Below are positions 34,816 through 39,172 of a stretch of DNA of 64,000 nucleotides, in pieces. The stretch lies in assembly GCA_023957755.1 (NCBI GenBank), contig JAMLGT010000001.1:124001-188000 (forward strand), in the 5' to 3' direction. The notes under the pieces are model-generated. The model saw nothing but the letters and a program-made list of their open reading frames with translations. It did not search any database and was not told the DNA's origin. The DNA is from Chitinophagaceae bacterium. Lineage in GTDB: Bacteria; Bacteroidota; Bacteroidia; Chitinophagales; Chitinophagaceae. The position numbers and the translations under genes are program-made. Numbering within the stretch: position 1 is the stretch's first letter; each line of letters begins with the position of its first letter.

Positions 34816-36270
34816 ATGGAACCCAATCAAAAAAATTATTCTCACGGTTTTCTATCAGAAATGGGCATCTTCGGTTTCGAAGAAATCGAACCATTGATTC
34901 TGTCAGCATTAGTTACAGAAGACCCTCTGTTGCTTATCGGCAAGTCTGGTACCGGAAAAACACACTTGCTTAATGGCCTTTCGGATGCCCTCGGCTTAAA
35001 GCACCGTCACTACAATGCCAGTCTCATCTCATTTGATGATCTTATTGGCTTTCCCTATCCAGCCGAAGACCGTGCAAGTATTAAGTTTCTACCCACCCCA
35101 GCCTCTGTCTGGGAAGCAGAGTCCGTACTCTTTGACGAAATCAGCCGTTGCAAACCTGAAATCCAAAACAAATTCTTTTCAATCCTCTATGAGAGAAAAA
35201 TTCTGGGTTTAACCCTTGAAAAATTAAGGTACCGATGGGCAGCCATGAATCCATCCGGGTTTGACACAAACGAAAACGGAGAAAATTACAACGGCTCAGA
35301 GCCTCTTGATCCTGCACTTGCCGATCGGTTTGCTTTTATCATAGAGGTGCCCGACTGGCGCGATCTTAAGGTTCACGAACAGGAGGCCATCATCAATTCG
35401 CTTTCCTCTTCGTCCAATACACGTATATATGAAGAGTTGAAAAACTTCATCCGGTCCACCCAACGGCGATTTGAGGAGGTGATAGCCAATCCTGATGCAG
35501 AGATTACTTCCTATTGCCGCATTGTGGCCAGTCTGATCTCAGAAGCAGACTTCCGGTTTTCTCCTCGCCGCGCTAAACAGTTGGCCCGTAATATCTCTGC
35601 TCTCCTGTGTGTAGCAGGGGAACTGGGTTACAACACTTCCGACAAAAAGAGGTACAATCTATTTAAACTGGCCCTCCGGAATAGCATACCCCAACGGTCA
35701 TACGTTGAAAGTGTTCCCGATCACATACCCAATTCAGTACACAAAGAAGCAATAAGGATGATCTCCGAAACAAACAGCACGGATCGTTGGGTCTCGGAAT
35801 TTCTGACAGATAAATCAATACCCAGGTGTATCGAAAAACTTCTTGACAAAAAGGTAGATATACACACCAAAAGTATTGCTGTTATACAATACTTAAATAA
35901 ACGGTCTGCAGAACAAAAAGCGCTGTTTTCTTTTGTACTGTTTCCGGCGGCATCTGAGTTGGGCCTATTGACCGAGGATGCATTGAGTATCATGGGAAAC
36001 ATTGCAACCGGCATTTACGAAGTCAACGGTTCCATTACATGGAATGAGACCCGGTATTCGTCAAATCATCCACAATGGTCCGAATGCCTTCAGGTTTTGA
36101 GCCGGATTCCCAATAGCGAAAAAATGAAAAAGACCAGAGCCAGACAGCTTTTCCTCCATCTTATCTCTGAAAATATTATGATTTCTCCTCCCGAATTCCT
36201 TGAAAAGCAGCTCGATGCCTGCTTTTCTAAAATGGAAGCGCTCCTAAAAACCAATGCGGAATTAAACTAA
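34816..36270 (+). CDS. MoxR-type AAA+ ATPase
   Basis: A 484-residue ATPase of the MoxR/RavA/dynein-related AAA_5 group. Walker A GKSGTGKT spans residues 42-49, Walker B VLFDEI residues 104-109 (Asp107, Glu108), sensor 1 Asn145 in AAMNPSG and the arginine-finger motif LDPALADRF residues 164-172. The last 250 residues are a helical lid and a diverged C-terminal region I cannot assign. MoxR proteins work with VWA partners to load metals, activate enzymes or remodel complexes (RavA-ViaA, NorQ-NorD, CbbQ-CbbO). The next gene starts four bases after its stop; together they look like one operon with the VWA and MetK-like genes. Confidence 0.88.
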   Translation: MEPNQKNYSHGFLSEMGIFGFEEIEPLILSALVTEDPLLLIGKSGTGKTHLLNGLSDALGLKHRHYNASLISFDDLIGFPYPAEDRASIKFLPTPASVWEAESVLFDEISRCKPEIQNKFFSILYERKILGLTLEKLRYRWAAMNPSGFDTNENGENYNGSEPLDPALADRFAFIIEVPDWRDLKVHEQEAIINSLSSSSNTRIYEELKNFIRSTQRRFEEVIANPDAEITSYCRIVASLISEADFRFSPRRAKQLARNISALLCVAGELGYNTSDKKRYNLFKLALRNSIPQRSYVESVPDHIPNSVHKEAIRMISETNSTDRWVSEFLTDKSIPRCIEKLLDKKVDIHTKSIAVIQYLNKRSAEQKALFSFVLFPAASELGLLTEDALSIMGNIATGIYEVNGSITWNETRYSSNHPQWSECLQVLSRIPNSEKMKKTRARQLFLHLISENIMISPPEFLEKQLDACFSKMEALLKTNAELN

Positions 36271-36274
36271 GGTC

Positions 36275-36739
36275 ATGACAGAAATGAACCCAAACACGGC
36301 GGGGCCGGGTTTTGTAAACTATCTCCAAAATACCGGCGCACCACAAAGCCGCGTACGGGTAGAACCTGTGAACTCCTCAATGCTAACTCCGGATATCATA
36401 CGCGGGGCACAATACACAATAAATCTGAATATTCCTGACAACATAATGGATATTGAAAAGTGGTTACTCAACAAAGCAAAACGACTTAAGCTAAGCGATT
36501 GGCAGGAAATTGCAATCAGCCTGCACGTGCCTCAATCAAGAATGATAGCATTTCCATATAAAACGGATAACCATAATGTGTATAGTGATTCAGATATTCT
36601 CTTTGCTGCTGCTATCCTGTCGCGAACCAGCGGGTGTAGTTATCTTCCGGCAACCAGGGGGGTGTTCACCAGAAAACGCCTTAACCGCTCATTAAAACTT
36701 ATCACCATCAATATTGACGCCTTCTATGAACTGGACTAA
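36275..36739 (+). CDS. Unrecognised 154-residue protein of the MoxR-VWA cassette
   Basis: I do not recognise this protein. It has no signal peptide or membrane segment. The N-terminal 45 residues look flexible and rich in Asn, Pro and Ser; the rest mixes predicted helix (IEKWLLNKAKRLKLSDWQEIA) and strand and ends KLITINIDAFYELD. It could be an adaptor between the ATPase and the VWA protein or a client. It lies four bases after moxR, and the following VWA gene starts inside its last codons (14-base overlap), so the arrangement is that of an essential partner within the operon. The function is unknown. Confidence 0.7.
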   Translation: MTEMNPNTAGPGFVNYLQNTGAPQSRVRVEPVNSSMLTPDIIRGAQYTINLNIPDNIMDIEKWLLNKAKRLKLSDWQEIAISLHVPQSRMIAFPYKTDNHNVYSDSDILFAAAILSRTSGCSYLPATRGVFTRKRLNRSLKLITINIDAFYELD

Positions 36740-38030
36740 AAAATATATAACCGATATTATTGAAGATCTTGCCGAAGAAAATGTTATTGCCTGCCGCGCA
36801 CTATTCAGGATTACAAGAATTGACTTCACCACGAATGTGCCGACCCTTGCGGTCAGCCTTTCGGAAAAGCCCACTTTGTACATTAATCAGAAATTCCTGC
36901 AAGAATATGCACATTCAGAAAACGATATAAAATGCCTGCTTCTGCATGAATTCCTACATGTCATGTTACTCCACACCGAAAAGTATCAATTGTCAAACCC
37001 TCTTTTGAATATTGCCCTTGATGCTATAATCAATAGTATAATTCATCGCGTTTATGGGCTGTCGTTGTCCGGATTCTTTAATAGGTTTTATGCCGGAACC
37101 GGAGTCGACTGTTTACTAAGACCTCAAGATCCGGCAATCAACTCTTCAAAAGAAATCAACTGGAAGGAAATTCATAATGAAATTTATTGGGGAAAATACG
37201 CTGCTGATGATTTATTCGAACTCCTGGAGTATTTGTATTTTAAAAAACTGACCGGTAACTGCCAGGGCATTACTTTAATTGGTAACCATGAAGGTCAAAA
37301 ATCGACTATCAGCCCCCAAAACAGTGCCTTACTGGATGAGATCCTCAAGAGTATGGACGGAAAAGGAATATGGAGTAAAGCAAAGGCTCGTGGAATAAGC
37401 TTTGACCATCAGGAAGACATCATTCAAATTAAAAGGCAAAAAATTGCTCAGTGGAGAAAATCTACCTGGAAGATTCTCAAAAAATGTCTTCAGCCTGATA
37501 AACGGGGAAAGACAGATATCAGACCGGACACTTCTATGATGCCTATCCTGAACAGCCACAACAGACGGGCTTTTACTCTGCTTGAAACCAGTGATATCAT
37601 CCCGTTTTACCCAATTCCTTCCTATCGAATTAAGCCAAGGGAATTAGCTACTATTTATCTTGATGTAAGTGGATCTATGGACGGAGAATTGGAACAAATA
37701 GCCGCGCTCCTTTCTTCGTTTAAGGAATCTATCCGGTTTCCAATACATGTGTTCTCAAACGAAGTGAAAGACGCAAAACTTAAAAATGGTAAATTAATTT
37801 ATGATTCTACCGGCGGAACATCAATATCCTGTGTATTCGAGCACATGAAGAAAAATAAAGTCCCCAAAAGTGTAATTGTTACCGATGGTTATACAGAATC
37901 CATTACTCCGGAAATGTTATGGGGTATTGGAGTCAATAATATCCGGGCAATTATTTCCTATGATGGAAATCCGGGCGAATTCAGTTCAAATAATATTGAA
38001 TATCATCAACTTGAAAATTTTAGAAAATGA
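36726..38030 (+). CDS. DUF2201-type protein: HExxH metallopeptidase-like domain plus VWA domain
   Basis: About 434 residues. The N-terminal half carries LLLHEFLHVMLLH, a zinc-binding HExxH motif (His74, Glu75, His78), matching the putative metallopeptidase domain DUF2201_N. The C-terminal 130 residues are a VWA-like domain with an intact MIDAS: DVSGS (Asp313, Ser315, Ser317), a downstream TGGTS threonine and the TDG aspartate near IVTDGYTE. I use the ATG at 36726; an upstream TTG would extend it by four residues. The gene overlaps the previous one by 14 bases and the next by four. DUF2201 proteins commonly pair with a MoxR ATPase, as here. Three hand-counted lines gave 66 G/C in 180 bases, apparently lower than the neighbouring nuo genes. 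Confidence 0.85.
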   Translation: MNWTKKYITDIIEDLAEENVIACRALFRITRIDFTTNVPTLAVSLSEKPTLYINQKFLQEYAHSENDIKCLLLHEFLHVMLLHTEKYQLSNPLLNIALDAIINSIIHRVYGLSLSGFFNRFYAGTGVDCLLRPQDPAINSSKEINWKEIHNEIYWGKYAADDLFELLEYLYFKKLTGNCQGITLIGNHEGQKSTISPQNSALLDEILKSMDGKGIWSKAKARGISFDHQEDIIQIKRQKIAQWRKSTWKILKKCLQPDKRGKTDIRPDTSMMPILNSHNRRAFTLLETSDIIPFYPIPSYRIKPRELATIYLDVSGSMDGELEQIAALLSSFKESIRFPIHVFSNEVKDAKLKNGKLIYDSTGGTSISCVFEHMKKNKVPKSVIVTDGYTESITPEMLWGIGVNNIRAIISYDGNPGEFSSNNIEYHQLENFRK

Positions 38031-39172
38031 AAAGATTCTCTGAAGCAGTTCTGAACGGACATCCGGATAAGTTTTGCGACCTGATAGCAGACCGAATTAT
38101 TCGCCATTTTTATAAAACGGCAAGGGATGTATATGCTCAAATAGAAGTAAGCACATGGTCTGACTATATATTCCTTACCGGCTGTGCAGTCACCCGGTCA
38201 AAAGTAAACCTGAACGTAAGGGATATTATTGTAGAATTAGGTTATGAAATCGGTTACACTCCCCATAATCACATTAATGTAGAACAATACCAAATCCGGG
38301 ATCATTTGTGCCGCATTACCGGAGACCCGGATGATTGGAACAATTTTTCAAATGATCAGTGCATCATTACTGCATACGCCGGTTACGACGACAAAACCCA
38401 TTTTCTTCCGCCCGAGCACTTTTTAGTCTGGTATTTAAGAGAATCTTTGATTCGTTCGTTTGATGGCGGCCTGCTTCAGGATCAGGGGCCGGATGGTAAA
38501 TTACTTGTAGTCATACAGGAAGATACCGAAGGTTGGCGACCGGAGAAAATCCTTGTAACGTTACAACAAGAACCGTCAATCTCATTTATAGACTTTACCA
38601 TTAATCTGAATCGGGTATTACATGAAGCCTGGGATCAGCTACGCACCCATGACAAGCGATGGAAGGGACTCTGGCATAATATCCGGGTAATCATTAATCC
38701 CAATGGCCCTTTGATAAATGGGGGAAGTGATGGGGACAATGGGCAGACCGGACGTAAATTGGTTATGGATTATTACGGTCCCCGTATTGCTTTGGGAGGT
38801 GGAGCAATCTATGGTAAGAATCTTGCTCACATCGACAGGCTGGGGGCCTTTAATGCACGCCGATATGCTATAGATCTGGTGCGCAACGGTTCAAAAGAGG
38901 CGATCGTAGAATTATGCTATGCACCGGGAATGAAGAGCCCCCTATCAATCCAAATCAAGTCAGAGAAAAGACACCCGGTACCGGGCAATCAATATTTTGA
39001 TTTTAATGAAATGAGGAAAAAGTTGGATGCTTCTGTTTTGGATTACGACCTTATTGGGTTAGGGACATTTTATAACGATAGCCTATCATTCAACCACGGA
39101 ACGGAAACTCCTATAAATGCAGGTTCCGGTCAGGATATCCCGATAATGAGTAAACCGGAAATTAGTGTTTAA
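38027..39172 (+). CDS. Diverged S-adenosylmethionine synthetase homolog
   Basis: A 381-residue protein recognisably related to MetK, which joins methionine and ATP to make SAM and releases PPi and Pi. Conserved: GHPDK (residues 11-15, with His12, Asp14, Lys15), Glu40, NDQ (Asp110), Lys158 in PDGK, NPNG (214-217), GDNGQTGRK (226-234, with Arg233, Lys234), GGGAIYGK (Lys264) and Asp270. One catalytic lysine (Escherichia coli Lys269 position) is His268, and the mobile loop and C-terminus are diverged and shortened. It overlaps the VWA gene by four bases. It is most likely a second, specialised copy; the housekeeping metK would be elsewhere. Substrate and product cannot be told from sequence. Confidence 0.8.
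   Translation: MKRFSEAVLNGHPDKFCDLIADRIIRHFYKTARDVYAQIEVSTWSDYIFLTGCAVTRSKVNLNVRDIIVELGYEIGYTPHNHINVEQYQIRDHLCRITGDPDDWNNFSNDQCIITAYAGYDDKTHFLPPEHFLVWYLRESLIRSFDGGLLQDQGPDGKLLVVIQEDTEGWRPEKILVTLQQEPSISFIDFTINLNRVLHEAWDQLRTHDKRWKGLWHNIRVIINPNGPLINGGSDGDNGQTGRKLVMDYYGPRIALGGGAIYGKNLAHIDRLGAFNARRYAIDLVRNGSKEAIVELCYAPGMKSPLSIQIKSEKRHPVPGNQYFDFNEMRKKLDASVLDYDLIGLGTFYNDSLSFNHGTETPINAGSGQDIPIMSKPEISV

What the first reader, a model, noticed from the sequence alone, without database searches (positions are those of the whole stretch)
34816..39172. Four-gene MoxR ATPase, unknown protein, HExxH-VWA protein and SAM-synthetase-like enzyme in one operon
MoxR-VWA pairs are known to activate or remodel client enzymes (RavA-ViaA, NorQ-NorD, CbbQ-CbbO, magnesium chelatase I-D). 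Here the pair is joined by overlapping starts (4, 14 and 4 bases) to a diverged MetK and an unrecognised 154-residue protein. The coupling of an ATP-driven MoxR-VWA machine to a SAM-synthetase-like enzyme is not one I recognise from described systems. It sits between housekeeping genes, has its own long upstream gap, and its VWA gene looks A/T-richer than neighbours. Possible roles (inferred): regulated SAM or SAM-analogue production, maturation of the MetK-like enzyme by the ATPase, or a stress or phage-defence module.
Basis: partly seen in the sequence, partly recalled or inferred. Interest (0 to 1): 0.85.

Follow-up and report, generated by a model that had tools for sequence, protein, structure and literature searches.

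The report
MoxR–VWA machine with variant SAM synthetase
A rare, apparently mobile four-gene bacterial cassette pairs an ATP-driven protein-remodelling machine with an altered relative of the enzyme that makes S-adenosylmethionine, and the pairing recurs in several bacterial phyla, so it looks like an undescribed system that may activate an unusual adenosyl-transfer enzyme.

Summary
Four co-directional genes (34816-39172) encode a MoxR ATPase, small protein X, an HExxH-VWA protein and a diverged MetK; the first junction is a 4-base gap, not an overlap. The MetK is not the housekeeping gene: the genome has another. One GTDB contig scan found 22 loci with this MetK clade, in several phyla by title. 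In 20 of 20 with enough flank, moxR, vwa and metK keep their order; X was identified in 19. The clade keeps the ATP/ribose/metal residues but lost methionine-side Glu55 (22 of 22), Lys269 and Ile302 (21 of 21 readable). In 21 of 22 host genomes an ordinary metK lies elsewhere. Searches not keyed on MetK gave nine trio loci (two among the 22): six have a MetK-family gene beside the trio (two of them an extra ordinary metK, two a second variant), two have none, one is cut. Window genes are under purifying selection; two congeners lack the cassette at this site. I read it as a dedicated MoxR-VWA remodelling machine for a MetK-family client with a changed second substrate. Defence genes flank 5 of 21 loci, but the control also has hits. 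Function is inferred; no paper found describes it.

The parts
34816..36270 (+). MoxR-type AAA+ ATPase, 484 aa (P0001)
   Evidence: Pfam AAA_5 38.6 bits over cut-off 22; G42, G45-T49, D107-E108, R171 and S249-R252 invariant in 18 of 18 aligned cassette MoxRs
36275..36739 (+). protein X, 154 aa, no known family
   Evidence: no Pfam, NCBIfam, PADLOC or PHROG match; alignment of 19 sequences, the window's included, with N-terminal motif near N-x-GGP-x-SR and C-terminal RLxR..Y; model pLDDT 80, no clear PDB fold match
36726..38030 (+). HExxH + VWA (MIDAS) protein, 434 aa from ATG (alternative TTG at 36714)
   Evidence: DUF2201_N and DUF2201 matches below cut-offs; HEFLH and D313, S315, S317, T365, D387 invariant in 20 of 20 rows; best Foldseek match is NorD in the NorQD complex 9qhe, E 4.6e-4
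38027..39172 (+). variant MetK (methionine adenosyltransferase family), 381 aa
   Evidence: Pfam N and C domains over cut-off, TIGR01034 132.6 bits against cut-off 309.4; separate clade with support 100/100; altered methionine-side residues
34292..34815 (.). 524-base upstream intergenic region, presumed promoter region
   Evidence: position only; not analysed further

Best explanation
The cassette is an accessory, probably horizontally exchanged system in which a MoxR ATPase, protein X and an HExxH-VWA protein form an ATP-driven remodelling machine (works like NorQ-NorD or CbbQ-CbbO) whose dedicated client is the MetK-family enzyme encoded with it. In most copies the client is a variant MetK that should still bind the nucleotide triphosphate and metals but has lost the residues that hold methionine's amino and carboxyl groups in ordinary enzymes, so it probably transfers adenosine to a different acceptor, or handles methionine differently. 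Shown: gene order, conservation, residue changes, presence of a separate housekeeping metK, repeated linkage of the trio to MetK-family genes. Inferred: that the trio acts on the MetK protein, that the acceptor differs, and what the product is for.
For: Same order of moxR, vwa and metK in 20 of 20 loci with room (X identified in 19 of these). Nine trio loci found without MetK as query (two of them, G159 and G323, are also among the 22): a MetK-family gene beside the trio in 6, absent in 2, not visible in 1. Two of the six carry an extra ordinary metK upstream and no variant; two carry a second variant MetK downstream. Extra full-length ordinary metK also upstream of the cassette in L026 and L030, with an overlapping-gene chain in L030. 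Cassette MetKs: H14, D16, E42, D118, D163, K165, D238, R244, K245 in 22 of 22, but E55 in 0 of 22 against 18 of 18 ordinary; K269 is H in 20 and Y in 1 of 21 readable; I302 is P in 21 of 21 readable. Roles of E55, Q98, K269, D238: PMC3853416 section 8, PMC1282579 passage. Distances of the four proteins correlate over 16 loci, r 0.755-0.920. VWA model's best Foldseek match is NorD bound to NorQ. Purifying selection.
Against: No physical interaction or activity is shown. Two trio loci lack a MetK nearby: G563, whose genome has only an ordinary metK, and L079. In G482 the contig ends inside vwa and only an ordinary metK was found in the genome, so it may be a third. The trio can therefore exist without this client, or those copies are decayed. 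Archaeal MATs also lack the E55, Q98 and K269 equivalents and bind methionine with other residues, one of them a histidine, so these losses do not prove a new substrate; Q98 is 0 of 22 but lies in a poorly aligned loop and 6 of 22 have a Gln within 3 columns. Ordinary MetKs in L092 and L093 show that the trio can go with an unaltered enzyme. The correlation of distances would also arise from simple co-inheritance. The NorD match has low TM-scores (0.23/0.36) and many other VWA domains match about as well.
Confidence: 0.52

Rival explanations
1. Accessory SAM synthetase: the variant MetK still makes SAM from methionine with a rebuilt pocket (as archaeal MATs do), and the trio is an activase that relieves inhibition, giving the cell a second SAM supply under stress.
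For: L092 and L093 pair the trio with an ordinary MetK with the methionine residues E55, Q98, K269 and I302; extra ordinary metK near L026 and L030; diverged MTA/SAH-nucleosidase-like genes near L020 and L026 and a homoserine O-succinyltransferase family gene (279.7 bits, cut-off 27) after the L094 MetK point to methionine/SAM metabolism.
Against: E55 lost in 22 of 22, I302 to P and K269 to H or Y in 21 of 21 readable, adenine-stacking F230 to L in 17 of 22; TIGR01034 score far below its cut-off; 21 of 22 hosts already have an ordinary metK.
Confidence: 0.2
2. Defence or stress module: the trio senses a trigger and switches on the variant MetK, which makes a nucleotide signal or drains ATP.
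For: Restriction or candidate defence genes flank 5 of 21 loci: L016, L020 (McrC), L025, L026 (Hhe-like), L032 (DUF1156 methylase and PLD helicase); sparse distribution and absence from the site in two congeners; MoxR-vWA ternary conflict systems exist (passages of PMC7159879, and PMC8195603).
Against: Control flanks of 10 ordinary-metK loci also gave PADLOC hits at the same threshold; the window, L014, L019 and L024 sit among genes that look like core genes; no PADLOC match for X, VWA or MetK; no tblastn match on PLSDB plasmids or INPHARED phages with the queries tried.
Confidence: 0.17
3. Hetero-subunit model: the variant MetK pairs with the housekeeping MetK, lending the nucleotide half of an active site while the ordinary subunit lends the methionine half, and the trio builds or dissolves these mixed oligomers.
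For: The lost residues E55, Q98 and K269 are all contributed by the second monomer in E. coli MAT (PMC3853416 section 8), and an ordinary MetK is present in 21 of 22 host genomes, sometimes next door.
Against: F230 (nucleotide half) is changed in 18 of 22 and R229 in all 22, though R229 also varies among ordinary MetKs; no structure of a mixed dimer was computed.
Confidence: 0.08
4. Chance neighbours or an assembly artefact.
For: None beyond the rarity of the cassette.
Against: 20 of 20 loci with room keep moxR, vwa and metK in order across many assemblies, including one titled as a strain rather than a MAG (Cnuella takakiae, L034).
Confidence: 0.01

Closest known systems
NorQ-NorD (and CbbQ-CbbO): MoxR ATPase plus VWA partner that activates a client enzyme
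   Same: MoxR ATPase gene with a downstream VWA protein in one operon; VWA model's best Foldseek match is NorD in the NorQD complex (9qhe, E 4.6e-4); an enzyme is encoded with the pair
   Different: The enzyme is of the MetK family; VWA protein has an N-terminal HExxH region; extra protein X; no known client of such pairs recognised by eye in the flanks
Ordinary bacterial MetK (methionine adenosyltransferase, TIGR01034)
   Same: Same family and similar length, N and C domains over Pfam cut-offs, ATP, ribose and metal residues kept
   Different: Separate clade (100/100), mostly 26-33% identical to E. coli MetK over the aligned part, TIGR01034 score below half of its cut-off, methionine-side residues E55, K269 and I302 replaced
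MoxR-vWA ternary conflict systems of Kaur et al. 2020 (PMC7159879; passages seen)
   Same: MoxR plus vWA core with a third component
   Different: bpMoxR match below cut-off (21.6 against 27); no fused effector domain seen; the paper's main text does not hold the phrase SAM synthetase
DUF2201 (VWA-like) and DUF2201_N (putative metallopeptidase) proteins
   Same: Same domain order, HExxH and MIDAS motifs
   Different: Scores 20.1 and 18.5 bits, below cut-offs 26.4 and 23.2
Phage families phrog_1314, phrog_1297 and phrog_1569
   Same: Window VWA, MoxR and MetK match them at E 1.9e-21, 4.3e-12 and 5.3e-39
   Different: No phrog for X; phrog_1569 has no function given; I did not test whether the three occur together in phages

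Membership tests
MoxR AAA+ ATPase | AAA_5 domain over curated cut-off | tested here: met
   AAA_5 38.6 bits, cut-off 22; the related AAA_3 model scored 24.6, below its cut-off 27
MoxR AAA+ ATPase | Walker A, Walker B DE, arginine and sensor motifs conserved | tested here: met
   G42, G45-T49, D107-E108, R171, R251-R252 invariant in 18 of 18; naming of the motifs is recalled
NorQ-NorD / CbbQ-CbbO activases | VWA partner with the fold of NorD | tested here: inconclusive
   Foldseek 9qhe_G E 4.6e-4, prob 1.00, but TM 0.23/0.36; many other VWA domains match about as well
NorQ-NorD / CbbQ-CbbO activases | ATP-dependent activation of the client enzyme | not testable with these tools
   needs protein
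GvpN (NCBIfam TIGR02640, a MoxR relative) | equivalog cut-off | tested here: not met
   29.5 bits against 266.8
DUF2201 family (PF09967, PF13203) | score over curated cut-off | tested here: not met
   20.1 against 26.4 and 18.5 against 23.2 bits
DUF2201 family (PF09967, PF13203) | HExxH and VWA MIDAS motifs | tested here: met
   H74-E75, H78, D313, S315, S317, T365, D387 invariant in 20 of 20 rows
Methionine adenosyltransferase MetK (TIGR01034) | equivalog cut-off | tested here: not met
   132.6 bits against 309.4
Methionine adenosyltransferase MetK (TIGR01034) | ATP, ribose and metal residues (H14, D16, D163, K165, D238, K245) | tested here: met
   22 of 22
Methionine adenosyltransferase MetK (TIGR01034) | methionine-binding E55, Q98, K269 | tested here: not met
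   E55 0 of 22; K269 replaced in 21 of 21 readable (H 20, Y 1); Q98 0 of 22 in the alignment but that loop is uncertain
MoxR-vWA ternary conflict systems | third component VMAP, iSTAND or beta-propeller and a fused effector | tested here: not met
   no such Pfam match in the four proteins; bpMoxR below cut-off
Known anti-phage defence system (PADLOC-DB 2.0.0) | match of the system's proteins | tested here: not met
   only weak generic ATPase matches for MoxR (best E 2e-4), none for the other three at E up to 1
RavA-ViaA | ViaA-type partner and LdcI-binding region | not tested
   no model run

The most novel reading that the evidence does not exclude
A previously undescribed family of systems in which a dedicated AAA+-VWA machine switches on a MetK-fold enzyme that no longer uses methionine and makes a new adenosyl compound, perhaps a signal or defence metabolite; the same kind of machine is found with three kinds of MetK-family enzyme (two variant types and an ordinary one).
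Probability: 0.33. Interest if true: 0.88.

Novelty: new variant of a known kind. Interest (0 to 1): 0.74.

Why it matters
MoxR-VWA pairs are known for a handful of clients, mostly metalloenzymes and Rubisco (recalled); a client from the SAM synthetase family would extend the principle to one of the central enzymes of metabolism. A MetK-family clade stripped of its methionine-side residues, yet conserved across phyla, makes a concrete prediction of a new adenosyl-transfer reaction that a single purified enzyme can test. It also gives a defined client with which to study what VWA and HExxH partners of MoxR ATPases do.

Tried and rejected
Housekeeping explanation: rejected, since the genome has a separate ordinary metK and 21 of 22 host genomes do too (G577/L015 showed only the cassette copy, perhaps an incomplete genome).

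Mobile-plasmid or phage cassette: tblastn with the window VWA found nothing on PLSDB plasmids, a cassette MoxR nothing on plasmids, the window MoxR and the L079 VWA nothing in phages. The plasmid hits of the MetK query were all under 60% identity; the 40 of 166 listed were 24-30% identical and mostly annotated as metK. In viral contigs the MetK scan gave 6 MetKs of 30-32% identity that keep E55, the VWA scan none, the MoxR scan one (L079), a contig with MoxR, an X-like and a short VWA-like protein but no MetK in 11.8 kb. PHROGs profiles do match the window's MoxR, VWA and MetK, so distant phage relatives exist; not pursued.

Defence-island test: 123 flank proteins of 130 aa or more from the loci L015-L035 (L014, nearly identical to the window, left out; short loci gave few or none) against 100 from the 10 ordinary-metK loci L036-L045. 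PADLOC hits at 1e-20 occur in both; 27 families on the cassette side, 53 in the control, of which 25 each are listed. The control's listed hits were GajB, PD-T4-6, RTasHel and mad6 models; the cassette side has Hhe, DUF1156_MTase, PLD_Helicase and PDC models, but the tally does not give per-protein counts, so I call this inconclusive.

Fold of X: no PDB match (Foldseek best E 0.44; one VIA row, Z 2.1); this does not show a new fold. The VIA listing for the VWA protein covers mainly residues 303-434, so the HExxH region was barely tested.

Dropped rows: L029 (frame of metK and X unclear) left out of the residue counts, of the X alignment and of the MetK alignment A6; L034, L044, L051 left out of the trees because broken or short. 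L034, whose MetK reading frame changes near residue 258, was in the residue counts; it gives the gaps at 265-271, and its letter at 302 lies beyond the change, so I count 21 readable there. L022 and L035 are the same contigs as the query rows from G159 and G323 (equal lengths and sequence), so 20 of the 22 scan loci were new.
Full report
OBSERVATION. The window carries four co-directional ORFs at 34816-36270, 36275-36739, 36726-38030 (ATG) and 38027-39172. The first junction is a 4-base gap, the next two overlap by 14 and 4 bases. The upstream gap is 524 bases. By eye the neighbours are a UvrD-type helicase and a GroES-like protein upstream and NifU-like, PnuC-like and NadR-like proteins downstream (names recalled, not run against a library).

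THE PROTEINS. MoxR matches AAA_5 over its cut-off. X matches nothing in Pfam, NCBIfam, PADLOC or PHROGs. The VWA protein matches DUF2201_N and DUF2201 below their cut-offs. The MetK-like protein has the MetK N and C domains over cut-off but scores 132.6 bits against a cut-off of 309.4 in the MetK equivalog. MoxR, VWA and MetK also match phage families phrog_1297, phrog_1314 (labelled HNH endonuclease) and phrog_1569. The window's genome has a separate ordinary metK (G000:C34).

DISTRIBUTION. X was found in 2 of 195 genomes of the family sample, own included. The window VWA alone matched 7 of 395 genomes of the phylum sample, three of them only at E 2e-4 to 8e-4; the MoxR profile matched 4 of 395, own included, and 5 of 288 of the phylum of G589, the host of L027, itself included. 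The one scan of GTDB contigs with an alignment of three MetKs returned 32 loci: 22 (L014-L035) at 42-96% identity and 10 (L036-L045) at 26-29%. The 22 are titled as Bacteroidota groups (including Chitinophagaceae, Flavobacteriales, Saprospiraceae, Rhodothermales), a delta-proteobacterium, Myxococcota, Proteobacteria, Verrucomicrobiales, Roseibacillus, Lentisphaerae, Spirochaetales and Methylococcaceae, one only as uncultured bacterium; nearly all are MAGs, whose titles may err. In 20 of the 22 there is room to look: moxR, vwa and metK lie in that order on one strand in all 20. X was seen by tblastn in 15 of 20, as ORFs similar to it in three more (L026-L028), and in L032 by place and motif; in L029 it is unresolved. 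L025 and L035 are cut at the contig edge just inside vwa. None of L036-L051 showed MoxR or VWA by tblastn within the 6-21 kb held.

THE TRIO WITHOUT MetK AS BAIT. Nine trio loci were found with X, VWA or MoxR as query; two of them (G159 = L022, G323 = L035) are also among the 22. Six have a MetK-family gene beside the trio: G159 and G323 (variant metK downstream, the latter split over two contigs that share the end of vwa), G757 and G737 (an ordinary metK upstream, 30 bases and about 0.9 kb or more away, no variant metK in the genome, and a further ordinary metK elsewhere), G774 (L094) and G876 (L095 and L096, split over two contigs), where a second variant MetK follows a diverged trio. Two lack one: G563, where vwa is followed by an HTH-like gene and the genome has only an ordinary metK, and viral contig L079. 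In G482 vwa runs off the contig and only an ordinary metK was found in the genome. In L094 the MetK is followed by a homoserine O-succinyltransferase family protein (PF04204, 279.7 bits) and an N-formylglutamate amidohydrolase family protein (PF05013, 190 bits); PF05013 relatives also lie near L029 and L032, and a weak one near L030.

RESIDUES. Twenty-two cassette MetKs (window and L014-L035 without L029) were aligned with 18 ordinary ones. Kept in 22 of 22: H14, D16, E42, D118, D163, K165, Q188, D238, R244, K245 (E. coli numbering without the first Met); K17 is K in 20 and R in 2; K265 and D271 in 21 of 21 readable. Lost: E55 (A 10, G 7, S 3, C 2; ordinary 18 of 18 E), K269 (H 20, Y 1 of 21 readable), I302 (P 21 of 21 readable), F230 (L 17, I 1, F kept in 4). 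Q98 is Q in none of 22, but the loop is uncertain and 6 of 22 have a Q within 3 columns; E55 has no E within 2 columns in any. In E. coli MAT, D238 and E55* hold the amino group of methionine, Q98* and K269* its carboxyl group, F230 stacks on adenine, and starred residues come from the second monomer (PMC3853416, section 8 read; PMC1282579, one passage). The role of I302 near the methionine side is recalled. Archaeal MATs bind methionine without these, so the change predicts, but does not prove, another acceptor. The MetKs of L092 and L093 keep E55, Q98, K269 and I302; that of L094 has R, E, K and P there.

EVOLUTION. The cassette MetKs form one clade with support 100/100 in a 37-row tree and 100/99 in a 42-row tree. 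Pairwise distances of the four proteins over 16 loci correlate at r 0.755-0.920, with 0 of 2000 permutations reaching each value; co-inheritance alone would also do this. The window's MetK groups with L014, L015, L019, L021 and L024 rather than with L022 of its own family, with modest support (91/81 and 89/83). dN/dS between the window and L014 is 0.12, 0.28, 0.20 and 0.13 for moxR, X, vwa and metK, higher than in four flanking genes (0.01-0.09). Congener G134 has the GroES-like and NifU-like genes separated by another 223-codon open frame, and congener G045 has the UvrD and NifU-like genes adjacent, so the cassette is absent from this site in both. In 21 of 22 host genomes an ordinary metK lies elsewhere.

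NEIGHBOURS. A full-length extra ordinary metK lies upstream on the same strand in L026 and L030, whose genomes hold two further ordinary ones each; in L030 it is linked to moxR by a chain of overlapping genes (overlaps 34, 4, 4 bases). In L021 an internally deleted metK ORF lies just upstream. Diverged nucleosidases of the MTA/SAH type, below their family cut-offs, lie near L020 and L026, and related CBS-domain genes near L016 and L020. Restriction or candidate defence genes flank L016, L020, L025, L026 and L032, 5 of 21 loci. The control also shows PADLOC hits, so enrichment is not shown.

MECHANISM. Shown: the trio and MetK-family genes travel together, in more than one arrangement and with more than one MetK type. 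Inferred: the trio acts on the MetK protein as NorQ-NorD acts on its client; the VWA model's best Foldseek match is NorD in the NorQD complex (E 4.6e-4, low TM). Inferred: the variant enzyme uses a different acceptor. Unknown: the product and the benefit.

LITERATURE. Ten searches of the held open-access library were used. Papers holding MoxR together with SAM synthetase terms were few and, from their listings, not about such a cassette; passages were seen in PMC3893208 (in E. coli, metK is among 7 genes whose mRNA changes both on loss and on increase of RavA-ViaA), PMC8503589 (hits in the reference list only), PMC7159879, PMC10910872 and PMC8195603. Most subscription papers and all bioRxiv preprints are outside the library. 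So 'not in print' holds only for this library and these terms.

CHANGES AFTER CHECKING. Counts at K269 and I302 now leave out L034; the NorD fold test is now inconclusive; the PHROGs matches, the weak VWA hits and the G482 genome result were added.

Noticed in passing
L094:12027-13710: Homoserine O-succinyltransferase family and N-formylglutamate amidohydrolase family genes follow the variant MetK, hinting at a longer methionine-related pathway.
   Followed up: partly
L030:4217-11065: Ordinary metK and two further genes overlap one another and moxR, making a seven-gene run with both MetK types.
   Followed up: partly
L021:6222-6617: Internally deleted remnant of an ordinary metK directly upstream of the cassette.
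   Followed up: no
L034:10001-11049: Reading frame of the cassette metK changes near residue 258 in Cnuella takakiae; real decay or draft error.
   Followed up: no
L079:1322-4316: A viral contig carries MoxR, X-like and a short HExxH protein without a recognisable MIDAS part and without MetK.
   Followed up: partly
L092:6351-6758 and L027:6086-6394: Small related proteins (49% over 70 aa) stand just upstream of metK (L092) or moxR (L027); by eye like the arm-binding part of integrases.
   Followed up: no
L026:3171-6793: Cysteine/histidine-rich genes, two of them paralogous, between an ordinary metK and moxR.
   Followed up: no
window 34816-39172 against L014:6790-11146: Synonymous divergence is 0.08-0.16 in the cassette and 0.17-0.37 in four flanking genes, which may point to recent exchange of the cassette.
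   Followed up: no
L005:121-2206: Tyrosine recombinase and transposase-like ORFs downstream of the G159 cassette (names by eye).
   Followed up: no
PMC3893208: In E. coli, metK mRNA responds to both loss and increase of the MoxR-VWA pair RavA-ViaA, a possible unrelated hint of a MoxR-SAM link (passage).
   Followed up: no
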